This document shows positions 1 through 58,197 of a stretch of DNA of 64,000 nucleotides, one piece after another. A program made the translations under genes and the position numbers. This DNA is from Liolophura sinensis (lineage: Eukaryota; Mollusca; Polyplacophora; Chitonida; Chitonidae): contig NC_088302.1 in NCBI RefSeq assembly GCF_032854445.1, positions 28,682,330 through 28,746,329 of the forward strand. Direction: 5' to 3'. A model generated the notes under the pieces. That model was not told where the DNA came from and made no database searches. It saw nothing but the letters and a program-made list of their open reading frames with translations. Every line of letters begins with the position of its first letter. Position 1 is the stretch's first letter.

Positions 1-3000
1 CACGTACGTGCATTACACTGAGAATTTATTATCAATGTACGGACTTACAGTTAAGTGCTTGATTGTTTTTGATATTATGCTTTCTTAGACAAAGTTGCTG
101 CTTCGGTTGCGGCTTTCAGCCAAGAGGTTTGTCAGCTACTGCGCCGTCTTTGTCATATACCTAAGAACTAAAGTTTTGAGGAACGGCGTTCGCCACCAGT
201 CAAATATAAACATATTGCTAAAGAAGGTCCGAGAAAAAGAAAAAAAAAAGAAGGAATCAGGCTTAATTAAGATCAAGTTAAATTTGACAAACACCTTTTC
301 AACCACTTAACAAATTCACTAGCCTAGGGAGGTTATACTCCATGATAATTTAAATGCACCTAACCATTGTTAACCTCGTTATATAATAAAGTTTTTCTAA
401 CCCCTTTCTGTGAATACAATTATTTTAAATCGCATTACAAGATCTGCTATAACATACGTGCATGGACAAGCCTGAGGTATCGACTGAAAATAATCAGAAA
501 TTTTGAAAAGCTATTAAAATACATACAATACTAAAACACACCAATATATTTTCGTAATCACCACACAGTTCACCTGTTAATGAGTTTGTAGATCTTTTCT
601 AGAATCAATGTCTATAACGATGTATTCAACATAAATCATATCTAACAAAGCAGACAAATAGGACAGTGCATTGCATTGAGAATACGATGATGTACATTGT
701 CGTAATTTATTTTGGAACTTACTAATCGACTCTACATTCATGGTCGCGAACCTTATAATAAAGGACCTCAGAATATTTCGTCTGAAGCACAAACATGTTT
801 CCCCGGCCTCTCTATATTTATATAGGATCGCATTTATATACCAGATGTGAGCCGGTATTCCTGCATAGACTTGAAATATTGGTTATAATTTTTTCACGTT
901 TTTAAGACAAGTTCATTCATCCAATCGATTTCTACACTGGAGTTGAAACGCATACATATATATACAATACCATTTTACTTATGTGAGTATAGTCAGTTTC
1001 TCACAGAAACTTCACGCAAGACCACATGTAACGGTCCTACACGAGCCTGTCACTGTATACCCGCGAAAGCACGATGTAAAGGAGGCACTGGAGCCCCGTT
1101 CTGCAGGGATTGATTCCCTGTTCGAGGCTTTGGTCAAACCAACAACAACTTGATTTGAGAGATATTAAATTCTTATATTTCTATACAAAATGGTTAGACT
1201 ATTTACGAAGACATTATATACGCACAACTCTGCATGTAATGTCGAATATACTGCACATACATTATAAAATTTGGATCATTCACAATTAGGTAAAAAGCGA
1301 CATTTAAAGGGTTCACTCGTACATTTACCACGTTCACCCACCCCAATAATGCTTTATTTTTTATTTATTTGATTGGCGTTTTACGCCGTGACAATTGCTT
1401 TACATACGTAATGGTATGGTTATCCATAATTCTTAAAGTGAAATACAGCCCCTGACTAATGTTTCACTCCACTGAAAGCCTACCATTCAAAGTATCTTAA
1501 ACCTGCATTAAATAATTCGTTTAAAGTTTTTTTCACCCAGTAAAAGTTTGGTGAGACATCTCCAGCGCGACTCCATTATCGAAACCAAGGTGACGTCACG
1601 TTTACTCTAGCTGTCTAACGTCGAAGGTATTGCCGTATTATAGTCAAAGCAGATGAAAGTTGTGGACTTCGCCGATGAAGTTCCAAGTGATAAATAGCTT
1701 TCTCTGAAATTGGACACACTTGAAGGATATTTCTTCAACTGCTTGAATTGCTGATACAAGTAAGCCCGCTATATCGGTTACAGTTTAAGTAGATTGTATA
1801 GATGCACTGTTGGAGTACTCCTGGTTCAGGTCGTAGCCTCCGGAGGCGTTTTGCTGGTTATTTTGACCCTTGTTAAATGTTTATAAAATTACTTTAGGAT
1901 TGTTGTACAACTAGATTCATGCTCAACAAATTGAAATAAATCTAAGCACCTCTGAGGCTGATCTAGGCATTCGACTGTCGTTGAATTTTATGCTTCGGTT
2001 TTGTGGTGGTGGTATCTAAGATGAGAGCAGTACTGACCTAATCATCGCGGACGTCAGAGAAACCCCCTCGGCTTGAACACTGCGTTTTAATAATTTTACA
2101 ATATTTTATAAAAGAAAACAGGAAAAAAAATTATCCCTTGTATGCGAGAAATACAAAGGAGCAAAATTGATATTCTTCCATTCTAATTAATTTAGAGGGA
2201 AAATATATATATGTCAGAATTAACTTACTTTAAGTATTGTTCGTGAGTTGCCGTTTTCTCAATCCCATAAATGATTAAATCCCTAATGAATTTTTCACTG
2301 ACTGATATTTGTTATTTGGAAACTGCTGACTAAACACTAACATGGACGACAAAAATGTATTTGAATAATTTCAACGGCCTATAGAGTTTACTGGGGAGAT
2401 GAATGCGGTTTTTGGGTCGAGATGGTATGCTGCTGTCTGACATTATTTGTGATACCGTCGTTGAATATTACACGGCTTGTAAATCAACTAATTGTACGTC
2501 TTTGGTGGTCCGTAAATGATACACATCTATTCCACAACTCTGTGTGAAACGGCCCTTCTGCTACACGCAACTAAATCGTAAATTTCAAAATGATGTCCCG
2601 TGCAGTAGCTCATATATGTCACATCATGGAATGAGTGGTTCAAGGCTACGTCACAGCTTTGCCGCGCAATCTGATATAGCAACGTGTTTGACTGTATAAA
2701 ATTCTCAAGATGTCTGCCTCAATTCACACCAACCATTTGTGCAGTATTGTCATTTTGTTCTGCATGTTATTCGGTGAAATCTCACAAAATAGCACAGTAT
2801 GATACTTTTTAGAAAGCTTGAGAATCCTGCTTTCGATTGAAATATGTTTTAGTCAGGTGCTGTCTTGTCTTTTAAAGGGGTTATCTTATATGCCATGAAG
2901 GAAAAGTTGGTAAGCACGACGTCTTATTGCGTTGTATATCTGTGCTTGTCTCGTATGGCCAAAATAGTGTATATCTGGAAATTACCAATATCACTAATAT

Positions 3001-7491: not shown

Positions 7492-7870
7492 CTATTCTAG
7501 TATTAAAAAACTAAATGTTACAACCCTTGGACTACGTGCATGCTCAGAGACAATGTTATAAAACAGCGTGACTAGTTTAAAACTGTGTCGTGTGTGCAGC
7601 AAATAAAGGACTACCTTGTTTATCTATTTCCCGATATATAGCCAGCCGTCTATTATGACGTACATAGTACACAGATTTTACTCGTTGTACACGAAACACA
7701 CTTGAGTAAAGCAATATGTCATTGTACAAACAATCTTTGTTTCGCTGTAAAATACTTTACTCAGACCTGCGCGTATACCTATAGGTATATATTGTCACCT
7801 ATGTCCGCCTTATACTGTGTATAATCACTCATACATGTACATACAACGTATATGCTGATGATTTTCAATG

Positions 7871-8161
7871 TCTTCCTTTCTGGTCGTACGTGAGGTCTTC
7901 CAGCAACCTGCGGATGGTGGTTGGTTTTCCTCGTTTTCTGCCGGGTTTCTTCACACCATATACTTTTCTGTATTTTGTTACGACCTGTATTCCCATTTTC
8001 GCACTTTGCAACCCAAAGTTCTACATAGTTTCTTAATATTTTGCCTGCATAAAGAACTGTTTTCAAGAATTGACGTTTACCCTTCTTCTCTAGCCCATGT
8101 GTGCATTCCCTATACGCTGGTCGCCGTCATATAAGTGAGATATTTTTGAGTGCGACATTAA
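7871..8161 (+). mobile_element. SINE (family 1), split by two insertions
   Basis: 7871-7961 matches the SINE body ('cagcaacctgcggatggt' and the 'gggtttc..caccata' segment). 8114-8161 matches the next part ('cgccgtcatataagtgaga', 'gagtgcgacattaa'). Between them lie about 150 bp of unrelated sequence. The SINE tail continues on the other side of the THAP transposon at 10523-10546 ('ttaaacaacaaat...ataaataaa'). The SINE is therefore older than both insertions. Confidence 0.75.
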
Positions 8162-8474
8162 AGGATTAGTCTCCAGATTCATTATTTATTCATAATTAGC
8201 TACCCTTGTATATATTGTTAGACTGAGTCTAAAACAATTTTGAAAAAAAAGGTACATTAATCTTAGTAATATGGCACTTAAAATCACTAGAAAATGGGGC
8301 TGGTTTTATGCATTTTTCCGTCAACAGTCGGTAGTCTCCGCCGAATTACATCATACAAGTCTAACCTTCACGAGCTGTCAGAGCTTCGCCATTTAGTTCC
8401 TTGTTAAAAAAGCTACAAGGGTGACATCAAGCATATCGAATTTCTTCAAGAAATGGTTTGCTGTTCTGCATACG

Positions 8475-8570
8475 TTTGTAAAAACAGATAATCGAAGGAA
8501 CCTGGAGTTAATTTTTCAGTCCATTTTGTACCCACTGAAAACAGCCGTACCTGCTCGGTATCCAGTCATA
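8475..8570 (+). pseudogene. THAP zinc-finger remains (copy A)
   Basis: In one frame the translation contains 'VCKNR', a stop, then 'SKEPGVNFSVHFVP'. This is the start of a THAP domain, whose usual pattern is a Cys pair before K-N-R and an F-x-x-F-P segment. The later part of the domain (Trp, C..H) is not recognisable. An in-frame stop interrupts it, so it is not functional. The parallel stretch in copy B is better preserved. Confidence 0.55.
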
Positions 8571-8586
8571 TCGTCTAACGAATGTA

Positions 8587-8790
8587 GGACATTTCCCCCA
8601 CCCCCCGGACATACCCCCCCGGACATACCCCCCCCCAACATTATCCCCTCTGGACATTTTCTCCTCCAGGATATTTTCCCCCACCCCCCGGACATACCCC
8701 CCCGGACATACCCCCCCCCCCCGCAACATTATCCCCTCTGGACATTTTCTCCTCCAGGACATTTTCCCCTCCAGGACATTTTCCTCTCAC
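8587..8790. repeat. C-rich tandem array, about 85-bp unit
   Basis: Two full units and a partial one. Each contains 'ggacattttcccccacc', two 'ccccccggacata' segments and 'aacattatcccctctggac'. The minus strand carries four or more runs of six to eight G close together. Reverse-complement units lie at about 9268-9368. Confidence 0.85.
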
Positions 8791-9267
8791 TGTGTGTGAA
8801 TAGAACCTTCTGTGGTCCGTCCTCCATTATCCATAGTCAAGAGTCGATCTTAATCATTAAAACATTTACAAATTGGAAAGTTTTGGCAAAAACCTGCAGA
8901 AGTTTTTTTCCATGTGTGGCGTTCAATTCAATTAAATCCACACTTTGTAAAGACAATCTGTTGATACAACGTAGGCCTGATATGGGTCAAGGACAGTAGA
9001 CAAAATAAACGGAAAGCTTATTCATGATAAATAGATGTTTTATTATTTGGAACAACAGGCTGAGAACAAGTATTGTTTCTCAGTTTCTCAGTGAAATACA
9101 TTATAGCACACAGTTCAATATAGCACCATATGAAGATAAATACCTGAATTTTGTTAATATGTAAAATAATTGCTTATTTTGACACCCTGGGCTATTCATT
9201 ACAAGACACCTCACTTAGAAGATCATATTTATATTTCCCACTGATCATATATACATGTAGATATATA

Positions 9268-9368
9268 GGGAGGGGAAAATGTCCGGAGTAATGTCCATGT
9301 TCGAAAATGTCTGGGGATAAAATGTCCGGGGGTGGGGGGATGTGTCCGGGAGAGAAAATGTCCGTACC
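9268..9368. repeat. G-rich array, inverted relative to 8587-8790
   Basis: Repeats of 'aaaatgtccggg' and 'gggggtggggggatgtgtcc' are the reverse complement of the C-rich units at 8587-8790. The two arrays form inverted arms around about 480 bp of spacer. Confidence 0.8.
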
Positions 9369-10546
9369 CCACCTTCTAACAGCTAACTCGTCCAAGTCAA
9401 ATCGTTTAATACCATGGGTCGAATCGTCTTCGGTCTAAGTCAGATCGCCTAACAATATATGTGTTGGATATTTGGGTTACTGGTTCCATGTTATCTGCAT
9501 TTGTTTGCAATGAGACATTGTGATTCATTTTTGATGTCTTTATTTCAGGAAAACTCCATTTTTCCTGAGTTTTTCAAGTTATCTCCCTTTACTTCAGCTT
9601 GCCCAGGATGAAGAAAAAAAAATCCAACAGAGAATAAATTAACATCTGGATATACATACCGTTGTTATTTTCAACAGAATACAATTTTACAAATATATGT
9701 ATCTGTTTAAGCCGCATACGCTTTGGTTCCTAAGGATAAAGCACATTTTAATTCCAGCACCAAAAATATGTTCATACTAATGTGTTTCTTTCGAAACGAT
9801 AGAATTTGAAACAAATGATATAGTAATAATAAGCAATACTTGGAGAAACTGATAGATAGGAAATCTCTGTACACTGTAACGCCAAGGTCCACATCCACCA
9901 GATCGGAATGCCGACAATAACATGCACCGGTAATTGTCATCGCACCCGGGTATGAATTTTGAATCCATTGAGGGACAGAATATTTATTGTGAAGCGGACA
10001 GAGGGAAAGAATAGTAAATAAATATAAAATCTTAAAATAAACACTTGAAATGTACAGAGTAACACAGGGTAAAGCTATAGTTTACTAGTCCGTATATTGT
10101 CAGTGCGGTTGGAAATGCCTAGACATGCAAAGATCAAATTCAAACTCAGAAAACTCTGAATCTGAAGACAGAGATGTCAGTGTCATAAATCGGAACTTCA
10201 ACATCGTCCACTATGGGTTTCAAATTGATATGGTAATATATCTGCTTCTTAGTAGCCATGCAGAATCAATCTCGAAAATGACATCTTGCTGATACGAATC
10301 CGTAGGTTATTTAAGCCAGTAAGGCTTGGGTTGGCCATCTATGACGTCACCCTCTGAGCTGTACCGGGTGAAGATCGGCTAGGGCATTGGCGGGCATCAA
10401 AATCTATTGTTTTTGGAGGATTTAAAGCCATTATTACGTTTCTCAGCAGCCCTCCCCGTACCGGGTAACATACTGTTTAAACAGGTTATAATCTTCATCA
10501 TTAGGGCCTGTAGCTAAATCCTTTAAACAACAAATATATAAATAAA

Positions 10547-15100: not shown

Positions 15101-18100
15101 TTGTGGCCTTCAGCTTCTGCCCGTTGTACTCGACTGAATCCATGGCCTCGAGTACATGTAAATCATATTTGTCTGTTGAAGGAGGGTTTTATGTAGTACA
15201 GACATGACAGAACTGGTGTTATATACATTTACATAATGGCCGTGGGCTAGAAAACCACTGTCTGTATTTATGTCATTTCGAATTTAGGATGGTGAGAAAT
15301 GTAATTTTTCAGCTTTCAGCACTAGTAATACACTGTATCTGACTTTAAAAGCAGTGCTATATTACTATCATTCATGTGCAGTGTTAATGTACTAAAACCA
15401 TGTTTTTATAATACATGTACTAAAAAGAAATATGTGTGACCTTATTCAATAATGATCAATCCAATCTAACATACAGGTAATGAATGGTGCGGAAATAAAG
15501 CAGTGAGATGTACATGGGCAGAGAAAACTTCTGCATGACAAAGTCCTTTTAGCTATATGTAAAAATTCTGTACCCTATTTGTTCTAATTTTTGGGACACC
15601 TGGACTGCTCATTTTGGGCAATATATATGTAATTGAAAACTTTTTGTAGCAGGAATATTGTTTCTTTTTTTCTCATATGGTTAGACCATCTAATGACCAA
15701 CATACTCATATCTTTACTTTTCCAAAAGGCTGGTAGTAAAGAAATGTAATATTCTACTTTCAACCCTGCTAATATCTGTTCCAAAAATTAGAAGAATTAG
15801 GGTACTGCTGTCGGATTATTTCAGTCTGTTAGAATGTGGTTAGTGAATGCATGTGATGTCTAGTTACCTACATCAGTGTGGATAGGTTCTTGAACATAAA
15901 GATGAAAATTCTTCTGTTCTCTTCCCAATCTCAAAGGTTTGTGAATAGAAATCTGTCATTTTAGCTGAAAACAGTAAAGACTGCGTTAATTGAGTGCTAT
16001 TGCAGAATCTTGCCAATATAAAGAACACACGTAAGTACAAGTGCATGTATATTTTTATGAACATACATGTTAATTATTTGTGTGCATACTGTACATTACA
16101 TTACATGTCAAAGCATTACATACATGTAGTTACATGAATTAATTTGCGAGTGGTAGAAATGCCAATGCGATAATGCTAAAGCTAATCTGATATGTACATA
16201 CAAGTACAGTAATTACGTCTAAATGAGCGCAACCAGTAATTTTCCACTTTGGATTAAATGACGTGAAATATTTATACTGTAGGAGCTAGACATTCTGAGC
16301 CACGTCATGACTTACTGTGCATATAAAAGTTGCAGACGGTTTGAATGTCAAGGACTGTTATGTATTGTTGACCTGAAAATAGTTTTCCAGCCAGTTCTGG
16401 ATATAAACATGAGCAAATAGAAACTAGTGCAGGAATCTACAGACTTGTGGGAGTTAACTAAGATGTTCAAAAAAAGGATTTTTGTACTATAGTTGCTATG
16501 GTTAAAACTATGAAACCACCTTTTAGCCAGTGCCAATAACAAAAATTTACCTCTGCAGCCAGTTTGTAAACATGGGTGCACTTCTAATTCGATCCCTGAG
16601 TTGATTTAGAGTGTTTGTCAAATTTGTACGGCTAAATAGTTAAGGCACACTTGTTTTTCAGAAGCTAGAATACATGGAGACGCAGGGTGGATTCAATCCT
16701 GGCCTGGGATAGGAACTACGTGGATTCGACCTTCACTCTTCCCTCCAGTTATAAAACTGACTTACTGCATCTAAGTGAAACATTCTTGACTATGGTGTTA
16801 AACACCAATGAAATAAATAGATGGATCACCAGAGTATCCTGTTGAGTTGCTTTCCATAATACTCTCGTTATACACATACTTTGCATCTCTCACTTAAGAA
16901 AGCAGAGAAATTCGGCAAATTCAGAGATCACCATCAGTAAGTACAAACATGCACTAAACTCTTAATGCCAGATGTTAATGTTTGATATTTGATTAATGTA
17001 CATTGTGTGGTTGATGTACATGCATATATTCATTAAGTGTCATGTGAGGCGCCGGGTCATCCTTTGAGGATTTGATTATACTATTTTGGACTAAAGTTAG
17101 CTGAAATTATCTAATTTTGAAGCGTATGTAATTGATAGAAATCAATTTTTGTAACAATCTGACAGAGTTGGCCAGGTGGTGAAAGAGTCCTCCTTATGAG
17201 CAATTGAAATTACATGTATGTGTAGGTGATGTTTAGATGTGTCATCAAAGTTGACATTCCTACTTCATCATTTCTGTTCTCATGTTGAAGTCCTAGTCTC
17301 CTGATGCTGTGGTGCAGGATGGGAGTTAATTTTATATTTGTTTCTCAACTTCTGGGTATGGCATTGTAATGAGGTGGTGCTCAGCTGTATATACCTGATG
17401 TACATATTAAAGCATTAACAACAATAAATAAATACATACACTGTATACATGTTACACTGTAAACTCATGAAGCCAGTCTGCTACAAGGAAATGTTGGTTC
17501 AAAAAGAATATTAACACAAAAATATAATAAAAAGTAAAATAAAATATGAAAGCCATAAATGAAAAATCTACGTGAAAAGTTGAGTGTACTTACATGTATG
17601 ATAAAACTTTTTACGTTGATAAAGTTGTGCAGAACTAAAGTATTTCCCAGTCACAAGGACATGCATTTGCAAAATTAGTGGACCTTTTTACAGTATGTGA
17701 ATATTTAAGTACTTTTCATAGCAACATTGTCTGTAGGCTGTCGCTGTAAAACTTTTTTGAAAAGGAAGACAAGCAAATCTTTTTTAAGCACATTAGGGTT
17801 GTGGTACACTTTAAATAGCAAATTGTGAAATGTCAGTGTTTCCCAAGGATTGCACTTAGCTGTATGCAGTATTGATTGGGGTGTAATAAAGTTGTTGCTA
17901 TTTTCATTTATTTATGCGATACTTTACACATGTTCTAGTAACTAACATACATGTATATGGTAAGTAGTCTGTTGTATTCATTCAAAACTATCTATGGTTT
18001 AAATTGTGTATAACTATTTAAGAAGTAGTTCATCGGATAATGAATTCAATTAATAAAATTACTTTTAGGGAATGTAAAATTATCCAGTTCTACTTGGAAA

Positions 18101-21100: not shown

Positions 21101-24100
21101 GTCGCAGGTTTCCCTGTCGTATGACCAGCATAACTTCTCAACGTGTCAACATGGAGTGCCTGCCTGTTTTCCACTTACTGGCATTAATTTGCATATGTCA
21201 ATACATATATCAATACGTTAAACTATTTTTTAAAAAAATGTGCGTGGAATCATTTACCCGTCCACAAGAGATTTCCTGTACATACGCATGCAGTTAAATG
21301 CTCTGACTTTTGCCAAGCCTTTTTGCCTCCGTCAACGTCAAGTTGTTACCGCTGTTGGTGTTTATCTGTCCACAAGTCTGATTCTGTGACCTTTGGCAAT
21401 ATTTTCAAGATCATTGGAATCATTGAAGTTTATAAACGGGATGTTCCATGAACTCTTCATGTACGTTTCTTCGAACTTGAACCACATGTTCACATATATA
21501 CTTACACATGTAGTCCTGTAAAAGAAACAAACAGCTTTTCATTGACAGTTTCATTGCATCACTGGTTTTAGGTTGTGTTTTACGAGTAAGCCGACGCTAA
21601 TAAATCTAAGAATGGAATATAGATTTGGAAATCTACCTTTTTGTTTTGCCCAGTAGATGATTTTCCTTTTTACAGAAACAATTTTTTACAGGAACAGTTG
21701 CTGGAACAGTCCAGATTTCCCACAAATTAGATAATTTTTGAATTTTTTTCTAATTTGTTTTATTTTTATACTCTCCTTTGACATTGAAAAATGATTCATT
21801 CTGCCCGTAAAACAAAATTTTAAATTGGTGTATGACCTAGCAGTAACCTGTTTTTCCAAGGTCTCTGGACCTTTGGCGCCATTTCGTTGAAAACATGCCC
21901 TCTTAGAACTATGCTTGTTACCAAGGGGTATTGGTGCCTCCGTGGCTCAGTTGGTTACCGCGCTAGCGCAGTGTAATGACCCGGGAGCCTCTCACCAATG
22001 CAGTCGCTGTGAGTTCAAGTCCAGCTCATGCTGGCTTCTTCTCCGGCCGTAAGTGGGAAGGTCTCCCAGCAACCTGCGGATGGTCGTGGGTTTCCCCCGG
22101 GCTGTGCCCGGTTTCCACCCACCATAATGCTGGCTGTCGTCGTATAGGTGAAATATTCTTGAGTACGGCGTAAAACACCAATCAAATAAATAAATAAATA
22201 AAACCAAGGGGTATTTAGTGCACTGAGTCCTATTTTTATACCACTTCATTGTTAGTGTGCTGTCTAGGATGTAGAATAAAAAGAAGTCAAACTTGGAGAT
22301 TTACTTACCATTTTCAGAATAGCCAGTCTTGGTGTATCATCACTAATGAATAAAAAGGGAGGGTAGGTGGACTCACAGGGAATTCATTGTTCTTTATTCT
22401 TGATGATGAAAGAGATAAGGATTTACAGAAATTAAATCAAACTTTAAAATGAAAAAACTTATATCAAAGCCCAATAAAATCATTTGTTTGGATGCACCAC
22501 TTTGGTAGGTGTGATATTAAGTTGAAAGCATTACATGTGTGCAGCCTCATTGAAACAAACTAAAAGTGGAAAAATTCCAGGTGTTAACGTGGAGAAAAAG
22601 TTGCAGATGTGTGGCATATAGATGTATAAAAATATGTGTGTCCGTGCCTCTTGCATGACTACTGTAGTGTAAATGCTATATATAGAATAAAAATTAGGGG
22701 TAAAATACAGAGTAATAATTAGTTCTCTTCAATCGCACTACATGTTAGCATATATATCCATGTATGGTTGAATGCCATATGTAATAAAGAAATGTACACG
22801 TATACTGTAGCTTGTAAAAACGTTTACATTAAGTTATGTGCATATCCATGCTGATTACATCTGGCATTCACTATCAGATACAATCAATATCAGTATGTAA
22901 TTTATATTGCTCTGTTGTCATGCGCATCTGAACAGACTGCAGAAACCTGCAGTAGATGTGGTTATATCTTGTTAATTATAAATTGCAGGATTTTTTTAAT
23001 GGCAGGAGTTATTAAGTTATGTAACTTTTTCTGCCCATTATATTATACGTTTAGGTGTCAAAATTACCCACAAAGTGTGACTGGCTGCTAGGACCATTGC
23101 TCTGATACAAATCCACTGGTTCTTCAGTTACATAGACCAAAACATGATTGAACTGCTCTAGTTTTGATTTTCTTCTAAATATAGTGTCTAGTCGAAGCCA
23201 TATTTGTATATGGTTGTTTGTAAATGCATGGATGGTTAATGGTATCAGAATTAAATAAAGATGCTAATGCAATAATTTTTATACTGAAAATGTATGTGAG
23301 TTTGAAGAGAATTTTGTTTTAAAACACCAGTGTAGCAGATATTTTAATGAGTTTGCCTGAAATATAGGGCCATGAAAAACATTGGCTAATGGTGGCCAAA
23401 GGTTAAAGCTGTTTTACAACAAACAATACCCAATACATGTACATGTGTATCCATGAAAAATAACATTGTGATGTTAAGTATGCCAAAGCCATGTGCCATG
23501 AGCGAATTGCATAACACACCACCCATTTATCATCATCATCCAAATACTCGCATTCACAAAATATTCACTACTGTAGCTAATATGAGCATCAAAATATTTA
23601 CCATGCTTGACATAATTTTACACTGTGAAGTATCTAATAATGGTACGTGTGTGTGCCATGACAGTGAGTAAACATATCAGATCCATTGGTCATTTGCCTT
23701 AACATTTTGTTTGTGACCTCAATATAATTGACTACATGTGCATACATTATCAAAGTAATAATACCTTGGCTCAGATGACTTACTGTGACTCACAGGCCCA
23801 TGACCAGTGAGGTTCTATGTTCAAATCCAGCTCTCGCAGCATTGGGTTGTCTTTTTGGTAAGACATTTATGGGGTAACTGGTAAAGGTGGATGATTTACT
23901 CCATGTATGTCTGATGTTCTCCATCCAACACTGACAGTGGTCATTTATAAATTCTTGAGAACAGCATCAAAAACGAACCAGCCAATCAGTTACTCAAAGT
24001 ACATGTAACATCAGTTGACCCGAGACACTTTGGTTTCCTCCACCCATAATCTAATAAATATAAAGCCAAAATACATAGATGAAAAAAGATACATTCTTTG

Positions 24101-30100: not shown

Positions 30101-33100
30101 GGTTTATGTTGTTTTTTGTTTTTTTTTTTTCACCAGCACAATCACAGCATTTCTGACACAAACACTGTAGGTTATATAATAATTGTGTGTGTTTCCAGGT
30201 GAGTATAACGAGGAGTACATGGTAGAAGGAAGTGAAAGAGACGGTGACCTGTATGGGGCGGAGTTTGACAGCCTAAGGTTCCACACGTCGCATCAGCTAT
30301 CTTCCAGTGCACCAGACTTACAGGGGGAGTGGAAGGAGGTGCGACGGAAAGAGAAGAAGCCTATCACACCTGTCAAGGACACTAGTCAGGTGAGATACAC
30401 CGGTGTAAAAGTGGAGCTCTGGTAAACTGAACACATTGGATTTATATCAATGATAACAGGACCACACGAAAACAACACTGTTAAACATGTTTCATGACAG
30501 ATCGCCATATAGAGCTGTTAGAGCTGGATTCTGTGTATTGGTTTACAACACTGTTAAACATGTTTCATGACAGATCGCCATATAGAGCCATTAGAGCTGG
30601 AGTCTGTGTATTGTATTACAACACTGTTTAACATGTTTCAGACTGATCCCCACATAGAGCAAGAAGAGCTGGATTCTGTGTATTGTATTACTACACTGTT
30701 AAACATGTTTCAGACTGATCCCCACATAGAGCAAGAAGAGCTGGATTTTATGTTTGATGAGGAGATGGAAAACTTGGAGGTGGGAAGAAAAAACAATTTT
30801 ACAGATTGGTGAGTGGAAAAATTCTCCTCCTGTGCACAGTTGATCAGAATTGGTTTTGGACTAAACACCAGATTTAACTTTAAGTCAAGTCTTCAACTGT
30901 GTACGTGATAAAGACATTGTGCACCAGTGTAAACAAATGAACTAAAACTGCTGCTATTATACTTTGACTTCGCAGAAGTTTGGCAAAAAATTTAGATGTA
31001 AATTTTGTCTGAATACCAGTATTAGCTAATACAGTTTTGATCAACTGGACCCTGATCATGGTACGTGTATTAGCACAATTCCTAGATAAGGACAGAATGC
31101 ATCTGTGAAATCGGAAATACTAGCCTGATCCAAGGTATTTTGTGTTGAAAATATCGTTTGGGATTCAGACAGGTAACTAGGGGAGATAACTTCAGGTTTG
31201 GTATTCCCACAAAATGTTTCATTTTATTACTTACTTCAAAATTCTGTAGGAAAATTAGATTCTTGTGTATACTCAATAATAATAATAATAATGATAATGC
31301 GGTGATGTTTCTCAGAGCCTCAAGCTTGGAACTTAAGACAGGATTCAACTTCTTACAGGTCTGACGACGAATCGGATTATGAGCTACCAGATGAGGAAAT
31401 TAACAAAATTCTGATTATAACTCAAACCCCGCCTTCTCTACGCAAACACCCGCAGGGGGACAGAACTGGGGACCATATGCCCCGAGCCAAGATCAGCTCT
31501 GAGCTGTCTAAAGTCATCAATGATGGACTGTACTACTATGAGCAGGACCTCTGGGAGGATGGTGCTGATGTGAGTAGAACTGGCAAGATATTGTAATTAG
31601 GAATCAGTTGTATTTGTCCCTGTGACTGGAAATTGACATTATCTCAACTTTCGCTGTGAATTTAATTTCTGGCTTTACAACTGGGGTATTTCGCAGTTTT
31701 TTCTGTAAACAAGGTCTTTTTAGGCTTCATGTAAAAACAACCCTAAGGTAACCATCATAGTTTCATGTAAAGGCTAACACATTTTTTTGGCTTATATACC
31801 AGGTCTTACTATTTCAAAAAACTCCTCTGTATTTGGATTAGACTTGTACTACTGTATTTTCCCCAAATATTCTTTTAAAAAATCACTTTTTGAGGCATAT
31901 AGAAGGTTATAAATGTGACTTTTGGTACTGAAAGTGACATTTTCAGTAGGATTTCTCAAAAAGAAAGTAGAAATGACCATTATGAGTAATCAAGTCATGG
32001 TTGAAATTTAGGTCAATAGAACGTTCAGAATTTTCAGAATTAAGAAGCCCGATTTTGATATGCCTACTACATGTGTGTAGTTGTCTGTCTGTTTACAGGA
32101 ATTTAAGACTGTGCAGGTGATAAGCAGGGAGGAATTTGCCAACATTTCACAGGAGCCTCAGCCCCGTGTTGTGGACCAGGTGCCTCCTCCCCCACCCCCG
32201 CCAGCCTCCTCAGGTAAACTAATAGATGCAGGCACTCACCAGTCTAGCAAGCTGTACTGTGTTCACTATGAACAGATTTATAGACTGCTGTCTGCCACTG
32301 AAAATGCAGATTGTTCTAAGCAGATATGCACTTTGATAGATCACAGATTTGCCCATGCTCTGTTTTATTGTTTGCTTTTAGGGCCTCGTGTGCTCCAATA
32401 GTAATGGTGCTGACTTGCTGCGACAGTCAGGCTGTAACCAATGAAGTTGAGTGTTTGAATCCAGCTCTTGCTGCTTCGACTTTGTTTTTAAGTCAGGAGG
32501 TTTGTCAGGCCCCTTATGGTGGTGTATTCTGGAACCTTCCAAGTCAGGAGGTTTGTCAGGCCCCTGATGGTGGTGTATTCTGGAACCTTCCAAGTCAGGA
32601 GATTTGTCAGTCCCCTGATGGTGGTGTATTCTGGAACTTTCAAAGTCAGGAGATTTGTCAGGGCCCTGTTGGTGGTGTATTCTGGAACTTTCCAAATCAT
32701 GAGGTTTGTCAGGCCCCTGATGGTGGTGTATTCTGGAACCTTCTAAGTCAGGAGATTTGTCAGGCCCCTGATGGTGGTGTATTCTGGAACCTTCCAAGTC
32801 AGGAGGTTTGTCAGGCCCCTGATGGTGGTGTATTCTGGAACCTTCCAAGTCAGGAGATTTGTCAGTCCCCTGATGGTGGTGTATTCTGGAACCTTCCAAG
32901 TCAGGAGATTTGTCAGTCCCCTGATGGTGGTGTATTCTGGAACTTTCCAAATCATGAGGTTTGTCAGTCCCCTGATGGTGGTGTATTCTGGAACCTTCCA
33001 AGTCAGGAGATTTGTCAGTCCCCTGATGGTGGTGTATTCTGGAACCTTCCAAGTCAGGAGGTTTGTCAGGTCCCTGATGGTGGTGTATTCTGGAACCTTC

Positions 33101-36100
33101 GAAGTCAGGAGATTTGTCAGTCCCCTGATGGTGGTGTATTCTGGACACTTGTCTTTCCTCCACCCATAAACATGGGTTCAGTCATATAACTGAAACATTC
33201 TTCAGCACTGCATTAAACAACAATTGCTTTATAGACAATTCAGCACTATTTTGCCAATATCGAATGACATGGTCATTGTGATGGTTATGAAAAATGGTTA
33301 TTCATGGTGTGAAAACCCAAACCCATGAACATGTAATGTTTGTCTGTGATGAGGGTCAACCTTTATCTAGTTAAAGTAAATCAGATTTCAAGTGTTTGAC
33401 CCTCATACATGTACATGTGCACAGTGACTTTGGGTAAGTCCTATAAAATAGTCTCTGTTAATCTTAATCCCCGTGTATGGGTAACCAAATCTTTGTTCTT
33501 TAACCTATTAAAACAATACATCTCGCAGAAACAGAGAAGACACATCCCAAAGTGCCATCTCCAGTATGCCAGAAGAACCAGCCTGAAGTGGCACGCTCTC
33601 TGCCAGCGTATGTTCCTGACACGCCTGGCCGACGTCAGTACGACACACCCAGGACGCCGCATCGAAAGGACAACAAAAAGGCGCCTCGATTTTACCCTGT
33701 GGTTAAAGACTCGACAAGGCCTCCTGATCCTCAGGTAGTGCAAACTTTCTGGGCCAGGAACCTTGCTTAGTGAAATGATTGAAATGACTTACAGTTCAGG
33801 GGAATCGTATTCTGATTATGGCAGTAATACTGATTTACGTGTGTAGGTTCATGAAAACGTGAAAGATTAGAATGGCATCTAGAAAATTAGGGCCATCTTT
33901 AAGAAATTTCTATGAGCTTGTAAAATATATGTGAATATACATATCGAAACAATTTAATAAAAAATAAAGTTAGAGATTTTATCTTTGTGTTTATGTATTG
34001 TTTCGTCTTGAACACTGAAAGCCGTGAAAATCCTTGGTATTAGATGCTGGAGATGTTGAACATTAGATCTCCCTGTTTTAATCTGCATGATCTTGATGTA
34101 TATTGATGATGAAATATTGATTTCAGACGCCAAGAAAGAGGAAAACAAAACACAGCAATAATCCGCCTATTGAGGGTCATGTGGGTTGGGTAATGGACAC
34201 AAAGGAGCATCGGCCACGTTCCAGGAATAGCTCTACATCACACAGGTGAGGTGATAGAAGAAACCCTGGCCCTGATTTACCAGGATTTCTCAACCCTTAT
34301 CATTACCCTATTTTTTTTTTAAACTTTTTCACATGTTTGAGGACAATTTCGGATGCAATTCATCCACCTTAATGTTTTGATGATAACAAGGATTTATGTT
34401 TCAGTGGGCTTACCAAAATCAGTGGTTCACGGAAATCATCATGTTTTTAGCCTACATGTAGGCAATGTCCTCAAAATGAACAACACAAATTAAACATGCG
34501 CCAAGTTGATGAAATTTGGTTGCCATTTGAGTTAGTTTGTATTTTGATGCAGGTATATCTGAACTTAAAGATACAGAAGGTTTACAACTTTCATGTCCAT
34601 TAAGAATTGCCTCATGAACATGATTTCCCATGTTTGTACAGTTCAGCGAGTACTTTGTTATTAAGTAAAACACATTTTGCTCTTAATACAAAGCTGAAGG
34701 GTCATGTCAGAGCCTTTATCAATGCCAATCCTAGTTGATTATATAAGTAGAGTTGCTAGGGCTGTTCACTATGCTTGAAAACGGTATTTATATCTATACC
34801 GAAACATCGCTCCCAAATAAAGAGTAGTTGTTATCTATGTATCTCTCTTTATATTATCCAACTCAATTTCTAAATGCCTCTCAAAGATGTAATCCTAGTT
34901 TGTGTGTACATCCTCACTTTACGCTCAGATAACTGGAGAAGTTCCATGGTTTTATGCATGTGCTGTCCATATTTTTACATCCATTCCCCTGGGTGTGGTT
35001 ATATATAACAAACAAATCAAGTATAACTATGTTATTGTTATTAAGTGTAAATACACAAATGACCTGCTCTGTTTTGGGTGTAGTCCTGCTGAGAGCAACC
35101 TGTCGGCCAGCTATGGTAGCTATGGCACCCCTCACAGCTTTCCCCAGTTCCAGCATCCTTCCCATGAACTGCTCAAGGACAATGGCTTTGTCTGGCAGGT
35201 CTACCATAAATATCATGGACGATGTCTCAAAGGTGGGTAATAGCCTCTTATTGATGGGATGAGATCACCTTAATGAACTGTGGGGCTTGTTGCTCCTCCT
35301 CAAAGGGAAACAAATCTTAACACTCACAGCGGCAGTGGCATCTACCTACTTGTAGAGGGACAGTGAACCACATAGAGTTTCTTATGCTTCTGCCCAGTTA
35401 ACGCTGCAAATACCAAAACACTGTATTACACTGTGTTCTAGGTGTCTCTTACACCCAGGCTTTTAGTTCGCCCGGCTCACAGAATAATTGATGGGATGAG
35501 TGATAGGAAATGATACATTAACATGTTTACTCATTTTGGTGGGTTTGGTCTCAAATGTAGATCTACCCTAAATACTTAACTTTTAAATGCAATTTATCCA
35601 CCAGAAAAAAAAATTTGAAGATGAAGATTTTGCTATGGGCTGGGTTGACTAGCATCAGTGCTATTTTGTTAATCTATACAGAAGAGTATTCGTACATTAT
35701 GTGGACGTGAACAGATTGAGGGTTTTGGGTAACTCGTTATCATTATATAGTTAACTATTCTTTAGAAACATCATTAAATTAAATAAGAAAGTTAAGAATT
35801 TAAAACACTCTTAAATACAACCTGGCCTTGTTAATAATGTGGAATTGAAATTAATTTTGAGTTTACATATATGCCTCTTCTCTGCTGAACTGCTGTCATG
35901 GGCCTTTTTTTGTTCAGAGAGGAAGCGTTTGGGCGTCGGCCAGTCACAGGAGATGAACACGCTCTTCAGATTCTGGTCATTCTTTCTGCGCCAACATTAC
36001 AACAAGAAGATGTACCAGGAGTTCCGTCAGCTGGCCGTGGAGGATGCGGAAGCAGGCTACAGGTAATGACATTGGAATGCTAGACAAGCATTGTGACACA

Positions 36101-43532: not shown

Positions 43533-45290
43533 AGGCCAGCTGGATGGCTCAAGATTGCTCCTGTCTAACCAGATTGCCCTTGGCTCATTGCTGGATCACC
43601 CATTATTCCTGATTAGCAGCATCACCATTGTTTCTGACAACAAGATGGCCCATTGTTCTTGACCAGGACAATCCATTGCTCCTGACCAGCTGGATTGCCC
43701 ATTACTCACTTTTGGATCGTCCATTGCTCCTGACCAGCATGATGACCAATTTCTCCTGACCAGGAGGATTACCTGTTGTTCCTGACTAGTAGGATAACTC
43801 ATTGTTCCGGACCAGCAGGATTACCCATTGTTCGGGACTTGTAGGATGACATCAAGATAACCCATTGCCCTTGACTAGCGGGAGTGCAAATTACTCCGGA
43901 CTAACCAAATTGTCCCTTTACTCCTGACTAGCTGAATTACCCATTACTCTGAACTAATCAGATCACCCATTACAACTGACAAGCTGGATAACCTAATGCT
44001 CCTGACTAGCATGATAACCCATTGGCCCTGACTAGTAGGATAACCCAATGCTCCAGATTAGTAGGATAACTCATGGCTCCTGACTAGCAGGATAACCATT
44101 GCTCCTGACAAGTAGGATAACCATTGCTCCTGACTAGTAGGATAACCCATTGCTCCTGACTAGTAGGATAACCCATTGCTCCTGACTAGTAGGATAACCT
44201 AATGCTCCTGACTAGTAGGATAACCATTGCTCCTGACTAGTAGGATAATCCATTGCTCCTGACTAGTAGGATAACCCATTGCTCCTGACTAGTGGGATAA
44301 CCCATTGCTCTTGACTAGCATGATAACCCATTGGTCCTGACTAGTATGATAACCATTGCTCCCGACTAGTAGGATAACCCATTGCTCCTGACTAGTAGGA
44401 TAACCGATGCTCTTGACTAGTAGGATAACCATTGCTCCTGACTAGTGGGATAACCCATTGCTCTTGACTAGCATGATAACCCTTGGTCCTGACTAGTATG
44501 ATAACCCATTGCTCCTGACTAGTAGGATAACCTAATGCTCCTGACTAGTAGGATAATCCATTGCTCCTGACTAGTGGGATAACCCATTGCTCTTGACTAG
44601 CATGATAACCCATTGCTCCTGACTAGTAGGATAACCCATTGCTCCTGACTAGTAGGATAACCTAATGCTCCTGACTAGTAGGATAACCCATTGCTCTTGA
44701 CTAGCATGATAACCCATTGGTCCTGACTAGTATGATAACCAGTGCTCCTGACTAGTAGGATAACCCAATGTTCCCGACCTGCTTAAAAAACAATTGTTCC
44801 TGACTAGAAGGATAATCTAATGCTTCTGACTAGCAGGATAACGCATTGTTCCTGACCAGTATGATTACCCCTTGTTTCCGAGCAGCAGGATGGCCATTGC
44901 TCCAGACTAACGGAATGACCCGATTGTTCCTGACTAACAGGATGACCCATTGTTCCGACCAGCAGGATGATCCATTGTTCCTGACGAGCAAGATGACCCA
45001 TTGTTCCAAACCTGCAGGGTGGCTCATTTTTTCCTCACTAGTAGGATTGTGCATTGTTCCTTACCAGTAGAATGAACCATTGCTCCTAACCAGCAGAATA
45101 TCCCATTGCTCCTAACCATTAGAATGACACGTTGTTCTTCACCAGCAGGAAACTCTATTCTTCCTGTCCATCAAGGTGACCCATTGTTCCAATCAGTAGG
45201 TTGACCGATTGTTCCTGACTAGTAGGATAACCTCTTGCTGCTGCCAGCTGATGACCAGTAGGATGACCCATTGCTCCTGGTCAGCAGGAT
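43533..45290. repeat. 26-bp minisatellite (about 65 units)
   Basis: The unit is 'ctcctgactagtaggataac' plus 'ccattg'. The centre (44090-44760) is homogeneous. Both edges are diverged ('ttcctgaccagcaggatgac'). The same family reappears at 47205-47385. Minus-strand open frames come from the repeat. Confidence 0.93.
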
Positions 45291-56500: not shown

Positions 56501-56892
56501 TACTACTGCGTGGCCTTCATATAATCACGTGGTACTGTAACAGAAACCCGAGTGACAGTCAAAGCCGAATCAGGCAGAACTGAAGTTTAACACGCAACCT
56601 CCCACTGGTCGATTGGTACCGTCGACTTCCGACGGAAGCTATTCTAGGGTCCTTAAAGGATTAGTTTCCAGACTGGTTTTTTATTTCTAATTAGCTACCC
56701 CTATATAGGCTACATTGTTAAGTTGGGTGTAAAAAATAATGATAAAAGGTACATTAATCTGAGTATTACTATGGCATTAAAATCACTAGATAATGAGGCT
56801 GGGGTTATGCATTTTGCCGCCAACACTCGGTAGTCTTCGCCGGATGACGTCATACAAGTCCAACTTCTACGAGCTGTCAGAGCTTCGCCATT

Positions 56893-57055
56893 TAGTGCAG
56901 TGTTGTAAAAAACAGGTGGTCGAAGAGCCCTGAAATTAGTTTTTTCAAGTTTCCAGACGATTCGACCCTCAAGAAAGAGTGAATTCACAGCACAAGACAG
57001 AAGGGTTTTATACCCATCAAACACAATCGTATCTGCGCTCGCCATTTTCCCTCAG
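56893..57055 (+). pseudogene. THAP zinc-finger domain remains (copy B)
   Basis: The frame reads 'CSVVKNRWSKSPEISFFKFP', then 'DDSTLKKE', a TGA where the invariant Trp is expected, then 'IHSTRQKGFIPIKHNR' and 'ICARHF'. This follows the THAP plan: Cys, K-N-R, F-x-F-P, Trp, and C-x-x-H-F. The second Cys seems lost with one or two codons after 'SVV'. THAP domains bind DNA at transposon ends or promoters. Decay makes this a relic. Confidence 0.72.
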
Positions 57056-57694
57056 AGAGCCGCGAGAGCCATACAGATGAACTCGAAAGATTTGGCTACT
57101 GTAGGGGCAGCAGTCGACAGTAGTCCCCACGGTGACAGACACAACCCAGGACGTCTTTACTGGGATAATTTTGCCCGAAACCCCCAAGGTTGACCTATGC
57201 ACGATGATTGGCCCTCCTCGAAGGCTTTCCTCCCAGCTTCGCTAACTTCTACACAACAGACTTTCCAATTCCGTCGGCATCGCTAGGCAATTTTCACAAC
57301 GACACCTGCACACAGTGGTTATAAAATACAATTACAGTGTACTAAAGTGAATAGAAAACTGAGAGCAACTCTCTGTACACTATAGGCTATTCCGAATGAG
57401 GACAGGAACATGTACCAGTAATTGTCATCGCATACGCGTATGAATTTTCAATCAATCGGGGAATAGAATGATTATTTGAAGCTGACAGAAGGAAATAATA
57501 GTAAATATCAAATCTGATATACACACGAAATGAAGGTCCACGGTGTAAGACAAGATAAAGCTATTGCTTACCAGTCGGTATTGCAAGTTCCGTTGGGAAT
57601 GCCTGGACATGGATCAAATTCACCGTATGAAAAGTCAAATCTGAAGTCTAACCAGAGATGTCAGTGTCATAAATCGGAACTTAAAAGTCGTCAA

Positions 57695-57881
57695 TCAAGA
57701 CCAGCCTATGCTGGCTTCCTCTCCGGCCGTACGCCGTACGTGGGAAGGTCTGTCAGCAGCCTGCCGATGGTCGTGGGTTTCCCCCGGGTTCTGCCCGGTT
57801 TCCACTAACCATAAAGCTGACCGCCGTCGTATAAGTGAAATATTCTTGAGTACGGCGTAAAGAACCAATCAAAAAAAAATC
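57695..57881 (+). mobile_element. 5'-truncated SINE (family 1) nested in copy B
   Basis: Body and tail only, from 'tatgctggcttcctctccgg' to 'gagtacggcgtaaagaacca' and an A-rich end. Flanked by near-identical 'aaaagtcgtcaa' (57683-57694) and 'aaaatcgtcaa' (57882-57892). Copy A lacks the insertion at the same place. Confidence 0.9.
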
Positions 57882-58197
57882 AAAATCGTCAACTAGGGTT
57901 CAAATTGATACGACTGTGTAATTGCTTCTGTGTAGCTAAAATCCATCTCGAAAATGGCATCGTGTTCGAATTCCCACGTCATTTTGGCCAGCGAGACTTG
58001 AGTTGGCCATCTGTGACGTCACCCGCTGAGCTTTACAGGGCGGCCGGCTGGAGATCGGCTGGGGGGTGGTAGACCTGTTTTGATGGATTTTAGGTCATAA
58101 TTACGTTTCTCGGAGGCCCTCTCGGTAACATACTGTTTAACATGTTGTGGTCTTCATAATTTGGACAAGTAGCTAAATCTGGACACTCATCCTTTAA

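What the first reader, a model, noticed from the sequence alone, without database searches (positions are those of the whole stretch)
8158..10546. DNA transposon caught inside a SINE: the empty site can be read directly
The sequence left of copy A ends as a SINE body ('gagtgcgacaTTAA') and the sequence right of it resumes as the SINE tail ('TTAAacaacaaat..ataaataaa'). Removing 8162-10522 and one TTAA restores a normal SINE 3' end like 'gcattaaacaacaattgc' at about 33215. This fixes the element boundaries and the TTAA target without needing another genome.
Basis: partly seen in the sequence, partly recalled or inferred. Interest (0 to 1): 0.75.

Follow-up and report, generated by a model that had tools for sequence, protein, structure and literature searches.

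The report
Jumping gene inserted inside another
A dead DNA transposon landed at a TTAA inside an older short retroposed repeat, the original site can be read straight from the sequence, and at least two unrelated transposons hit the same spot in other copies; a clear but ordinary case of nested mobile DNA.

Summary
Confirmed. Removing 8162-10526 rejoins a worn SINE with no base gained or lost. The 20 bases right of the TTAA match an intact SINE tail at 16 of 20; of 884 TTAA starts in the window (both strands) one scores higher, itself a SINE tail. Of 53 other distinct places of the family, 10 match at 8150 but 43 at 8175, and 38 at 10500 but 1 at 10530. The consensus end TTAA-AGGATTAGTGTCCAGATT occurs 478 times at up to 1 mismatch; reversed control 0.

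The element is an old, non-autonomous Kolobok-type transposon: TTAA duplication, AG...CT ends, remnant of a THAP exon (above Pfam cut-off in 4 of 5 copies). No transposase core was found near it.

Corrections: TTAA is a minority variant of this SINE (4 of 33 tails at that column, 3 one base off). Copy A lost 12 bp of its right inverted repeat. The host SINE carries a second insert of about 154 bp, not found elsewhere.

Extra: two elements unrelated by BLAST sit at the same SINE base elsewhere (L073, L075), and SINEs lie inside five copies of this family. Preference is not shown. New members of known kinds.

The parts
7870..7960 (+). host SINE, 5' remaining part (worn; 77% over 95 aligned columns to the intact SINE at 21933-22202)
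7961..8114 (.). insert of about 154 bp in the host SINE; TATAC stands at both edges (7959-7963 and 8111-8115, read by eye)
   Evidence: the genome search found only itself (that search can miss common repeats)
8115..8157 (+). host SINE, 3' part up to the target site (33 of 44 bases, counted from 8114)
8158..8161 (.). TTAA, left copy of the target site duplication
8162..10522 (+). non-autonomous Kolobok-type DNA transposon, copy A (AGGATTAGTCTCCAG...CCTGTAGCTAAATCCT; 12 bp of the family's right inverted repeat lost)
8453..8556 (+). remnant of a THAP zinc-finger exon (MVCCSAYVCKNR*SKEPG...), broken in copy A
   Evidence: THAP was scored in other copies, not in copy A itself
8587..9369 (.). nested repeat with inverted GGACATTTTCCCC-type ends, found elsewhere in the genome at roughly 80-90% identity
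9370..9840 (.). stretch inside copy A with no match in the 65 loci compared
10523..10526 (.). TTAA, right copy of the target site duplication
10527..10546 (+). host SINE tail resumed (16 of 20 bases)
21933..22202 (+). intact reference SINE with A box (21943), B box (22013), ATAA-rich tail and 13-bp target site duplication ACCAAGGGGTATT at 21920 and 22203
56653..58197 (+). copy B of the same transposon family, TTAA at both ends included
57697..57880 (+). 5'-truncated SINE inserted inside copy B, flanked by AAAAGTCGTCAA / AAAATCGTCAA (reciprocal nesting; edges by eye)
1433..2875 (-). copy of the TTAA element family that in L075 sits in the same SINE position; TTAA at both ends

Best explanation
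An old tRNA-type SINE copy carried a TTAA near its 3' end. A transposase supplied from elsewhere moved a non-autonomous Kolobok-superfamily element into it by cut-and-paste, duplicating the TTAA. The element derives from a full-length Kolobok by internal deletion: it keeps both ends and the first coding exon (THAP DNA-binding domain). Afterwards copy A decayed, gained a second repeat in its middle and lost 12 bp of its right inverted repeat. Shown: insertion site, duplication, ends, family, THAP remnant in the family. Inferred: Kolobok transposase as the mover, cut-and-paste, internal deletion as origin, and the order of the later events.
For: Gap-free SINE empty site, 16 of 20 on the right. 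Sharp edges across 53 other distinct places. TIR ends in the loci with up to 3 mismatches: 54 of 83 preceded by exact TTAA; without the 8 ends of L040, which holds a tandem array, 47 of 75. 478 TIR sites genome-wide, reversed control 0. THAP (PF05485) above its cut-off in 4 of 5 copies scanned: L046 4.3e-9, L021 1.4e-7, L067 2.2e-5, L064 3.8e-5; below it in L025, 0.056. The THAP start is recognisable in 36 of 53 other places and in copy A, not in copy B, though the genome search finds a THAP remnant at window 56905-57075 in copy B. Published Kolobok traits: TTAA duplication and RR...YY ends (PMC9587614, passages); THAP, DDE and H2CH usual in the transposase (PMC6004289, passages).
Against: No DDE transposase with these ends was found. 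The 150 THAP matches scored (of 513 candidates) lie in open frames of at most 180 aa, and none of the 117 PF20700 matches lies within 10 kb of one of them (lists compared by eye; both lists are capped). 29 of 83 ends do not have an exact TTAA, which I read as mutation. The host SINE has no recognisable target site duplication of its own (no shared 7-mer).
Confidence: 0.92

Rival explanations
1. The element belongs to piggyBac, the other common TTAA superfamily.
For: TTAA duplication.
Against: Ends are AGG...CCT; piggyBac ends with CCY...RGG (recalled). The family carries a THAP remnant, which piggyBac transposases lack (recalled).
Confidence: 0.03
2. The SINE pieces on the two sides are unrelated, or the right side is only AT-rich DNA that looks like a SINE tail.
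For: The tail is AT-rich and only 20 bases are informative; the host SINE is worn and split by a second insert.
Against: Rank 2 of 884 TTAA starts, rank 1 being a real SINE tail; of 5129 TTAA starts in all held DNA (overlapping loci not removed) 14 reach 16 of 20.
Confidence: 0.03
3. SINE tails with TTAA are a preferred, recurrent docking site for TTAA transposons.
For: Three elements unrelated by BLAST (copy A, L073, L075) sit at the same SINE base.
Against: 3 clean cases among the 10 places examined of the 12 listed (copy A and the 9 fetched; 2 not examined); 0 clean cases among 14 fetched of the 321 found from the other side. About 4 million TTAAs exist in the genome (my extrapolation from window density), so a few hits in an abundant SINE are expected by chance. 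Among 53 other places of copy A's family I saw none with SINE cleanly on both sides (flanks only partly held).
Confidence: 0.1

Closest known systems
Kolobok superfamily, non-autonomous members
   Same: TTAA duplication, AG...CT ends, inverted repeats, THAP-type coding remnant
   Different: no DDE transposase found with these ends in this genome
T2-MITE family of Xenopus (PMC6004289, passages read)
   Same: TTAA target and AGG start; long-lived
   Different: published motif is AGGRR; this family reads AGGAT, so it misses at the fifth base. The other element in L073 (AGGAG) fits
KolobokP (PMC9587614, passages read)
   Same: Kolobok found in molluscs; that paper also restores prior-insertion sequences
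   Different: KolobokP has long terminal direct repeats and duplications of 3-4 or 4-5 bp; this element has short inverted ends and dissimilar left and right subterminal parts
Transposition-in-transposition (nested repeat) records
   Same: relative order of activity read from nesting
   Different: here both directions of nesting occur between the same two families

Membership tests
Kolobok superfamily | TTAA target site duplication | tested here: met
   54 of 83 ends exact, 47 of 75 without L040
Kolobok superfamily | 5'-RR ... YY-3' termini | tested here: met
   AGG...CCT in copies A and B and the 478 pattern sites; trait from PMC9587614
Kolobok superfamily | THAP domain in the encoded protein | tested here: met
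   4 of 5 copies above Pfam cut-off; trait from PMC6004289. Remnant only, broken in copy A
Kolobok superfamily | DDE catalytic and H2CH domains | tested here: inconclusive
   not found; open frames at most 180 aa in 150 scored; PF20700 matches not near them
T2-MITE | terminal AGGRR motif | tested here: not met
   family consensus AGGAT
piggyBac | CCY...RGG termini (recalled) | tested here: not met
   AGG...CCT
P element | 8-bp target duplication (recalled) | tested here: not met
   4-bp TTAA
KolobokP | long terminal direct repeats | tested here: not met
   5' and 3' end probes do not cross-match in the loci
tRNA-derived SINE (host repeat) | A and B boxes of the RNA polymerase III promoter | tested here: met
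   exact TRGCNNAGYNGG at 21943 and GTTCRANNCC at 22013 in the intact copy; box consensuses recalled
tRNA-derived SINE (host repeat) | variable-length target site duplication of retroposition | tested here: met
   ACCAAGGGGTATT at 21920 and 22203; none found for the host copy of A
tRNA-derived SINE (host repeat) | head recognisable as a tRNA | tested here: inconclusive
   no ARAGORN gene in the window, no Rfam match at E up to 1 for 21900-22250

The most novel reading that the evidence does not exclude
The 3' end of this SINE acts as a dispersed landing pad: TTAA-bearing SINE copies are recurrent targets of several Kolobok-type families, so SINE spread seeds later transposon spread and gives hundreds of internal empty sites that calibrate both.
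Probability: 0.12. Interest if true: 0.5.

Novelty: new member of a known kind. Interest (0 to 1): 0.33.

Why it matters
It gives exact ends and target site of a large Kolobok-type family (which I could not name) without a second genome, ties it to a superfamily by a coding remnant, and, with SINEs nested in the transposon and the transposon nested in a SINE, lets the two families be ordered in time. The same SINE position hit by three elements that share no sequence beyond their ends makes target preference testable by a simple genome count.

Tried and rejected
One search read the loci without turning minus-strand matches; redone. One search joined the flanks with both TTAAs by my slip; keep one. 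One search counted matches, not places; recounted by place.

Idea that the L040 array is repeated self-insertion into the internal TTAA: rejected, because only one 3' end was found in L070, which reaches about 2.6 kb beyond it; tandem duplication is more likely.

Idea that 7961-8114 is a mobile element: not supported, only itself found (that search can miss common repeats).

Candidate junctions dropped after reading: L071, L072, L078 read as SINE variants; L074 has no SINE to the left; L077 and L079 have no right-hand SINE; L076 has a TTAA element but no clear tail; L066 and L042 have SINE on one side only; L085 is ambiguous and the other 13 of the 14 fetched show no clean pair within the 1.6 kb held. 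Two of the 12 places were not fetched.

Autonomous partner: not found. Open frames in the loci gave an intact-looking Tc1/mariner-like frame in L033, not a Kolobok. The DNA shared by L033 and L035 upstream of the 3' end is largely the L075 family and broken in all frames read. PF20700 was chosen from memory as a possible Kolobok model; no co-location with the THAP remnants (by eye). L025 also hit PF05980 weakly (E 0.03, below its cut-off), which I take as chance.

Literature: the listings (titles and starts of abstracts) showed nothing on TTAA elements recurrently hitting one SINE position; this covers only those searches of that library.

Full report
OBSERVATION. TTAA stands at 8158-8161 and 10523-10526. 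With the DNA between removed and one TTAA kept, the flanks read ...atatttttgagtgcgacaTTAAacaacaaatatataaataaag.... Against the intact SINE at 21933-22202 the left 44 bases agree at 33 and the right 20 at 16, with no gap. Of 884 TTAA starts in the window on both strands, one scores higher on the right side (18 of 20, at 16801, itself a SINE tail), and copy A is the only one at 16. In all held DNA, overlapping loci not removed, 14 of 5129 TTAA starts reach 16; I did not sort these into SINE tails and chance. Shuffling the same 20 letters reached 16 in 125 of 100,000 trials.

THE HOST REPEAT. The intact copy has an A box, a B box, an ATAA-rich tail and a 13-bp target duplication, so it is a retroposed SINE with a tRNA-type promoter; ARAGORN and Rfam do not recognise it. 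In 33 distinct SINE tails found in the window and loci the usual letters at the target column are GTAAA (22 of 33); 4 carry TTAA exactly there and 3 more one base off. Genome-wide, the exact 21-mer TTGAGTACGGCGTTAAACACC occurs 207 times, reversed control 0. So the TTAA of this host is a minority variant. The host is also split by about 7961-8114, for which the genome search found only itself.

THE ELEMENT. and the end-specific searches gave 53 other distinct places as loci, besides copy B; only the best 40 candidates per search are scored and 30 loci returned, so copy number is a lower bound. By place, 10 of 53 match at 8150 (the SINE side) and 43 at 8175; 38 match at 10500, 33 at 10515 and 1 at 10530. 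The family consensus end is TTAA-AGGATTAGTGTCCAGATT at both sides; 478 places in the genome match within one mismatch, reversed control 0. Of 83 ends found in the loci, 54 are preceded by exact TTAA; leaving out the 8 ends of L040, 47 of 75. Copy A's right end lacks 12 bp, TGGACACTAATC, between two ATC triplets; other copies end at the same TTAA. Median divergence of 42 copies (chosen by similarity to copy A) from their majority sequence over about 255 bases is 0.108 (range 0.070-0.168; copy A 0.075, copy B 0.108): an old family.

WHAT IT ENCODED. In 36 of 53 other places and in copy A the start ATGGTTTGCTGTTCTGCATA is recognisable within 4 differences; many of the remaining places do not hold that part. 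It opens peptides such as MVCCSSYGCKNRSLNNPRVSFFKFPDD in L021; in copy A, from 8453, a stop follows after 12 residues. Pfam THAP scores above its cut-off in 4 of 5 copies and below it in L025. A genome search with the L046 stretch scored 150 of 513 candidates, copy B among them, in open frames of at most 180 aa. TTAA duplication, RR...YY ends (PMC9587614, passages read) and a THAP domain (PMC6004289, passages read) together point to Kolobok; piggyBac and P do not fit (their traits recalled). The DDE part was not found. PF20700, tried from memory, gave 117 matches, many in long open frames, but none within 10 kb of the listed THAP remnants (compared by eye).

RECURRENCE. A junction pattern (SINE, TTAA, transposon end; up to 3 mismatches) gave 12 places, reversed control 1. 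I fetched 9 of these besides copy A and left 2. Two are clean and independent: L073, a 492-bp element with ends AGGAGAAGAAAA (the published T2 motif AGGRR), and L075, a 1165-bp element with ends AGGACAAGACTGCACC / AGTGAAAAACAGCACC. Both sit between GCG or GCC and ACACC of the SINE, as copy A does, with left sides of 37 and 33 of 44 and right sides of 16 and 17 of 20. Neither has a BLAST match to copies A or B in the window. A search from the opposite side gave 321 places, reversed control 16; of those listed I fetched 14, none is clean and L085 is ambiguous. This shows recurrence, not preference.

ORDER OF EVENTS. SINEs lie inside copy B and inside L007, L034, L038 and L036, where a truncated SINE sits in the right inverted repeat between two copies of TTTAAATCTGG. 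The host SINE of copy A is more worn (77% to the reference) than the SINEs in copy B (85%), L034 (89%) and L038 (82%), though L007's is 72% (L036 not measured there). Both families were therefore probably active over overlapping times; this sample is not random.

VERDICT. It is a well-preserved example of an ordinary process, with a family that I could not name beyond superfamily. Interest is modest; the recurrence at one SINE base is the part worth a genome-wide count. That the organism is a mollusc is only my recollection of similar SINE ends and was not tested.

Noticed in passing
L040 (G000:C1:51950799-51951734, minus): Seven tandem units of the element's own left end, one diverged 93-bp unit and six 118-bp units differing by 0-2 bases from each other, joined GGCAC|TTAAAGGATTAG at the internal TTAA: birth of a satellite from a TTAA-to-TTAA segment.
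   Followed up: partly
G000:C9:31864581-31878122 and C12:29087401-29092292: PF20700 transposase matches with nearly equal top scores, 24 of the 117 in a 689-aa open frame (identity not measured), some in tandem with a fixed spacing of 4132 bp (four copies) or 3746 bp (two), which recalls the multimers described for KolobokP; apparently young.
   Followed up: no
window 8587-9369: Repeat with inverted, internally repetitive GGACATTTTCCCC ends, nested in copy A and found elsewhere at roughly 80-90% identity.
   Followed up: partly
L036, right end of the element: A 5'-truncated SINE inserted in the element's right inverted repeat, flanked by TTTAAATCTGG on both sides.
   Followed up: partly
L033:180-1307: Open frame of 376 aa that looks like an intact Tc1/mariner transposase (by eye, not scanned).
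   Followed up: no
window 43652-45232 and 32337-33299: Tandem arrays with units of about 26 bp and 51 bp.
   Followed up: no
window 1433-2875: Another copy of the L075-type TTAA element, 73% identical, TTAA at both ends.
   Followed up: partly
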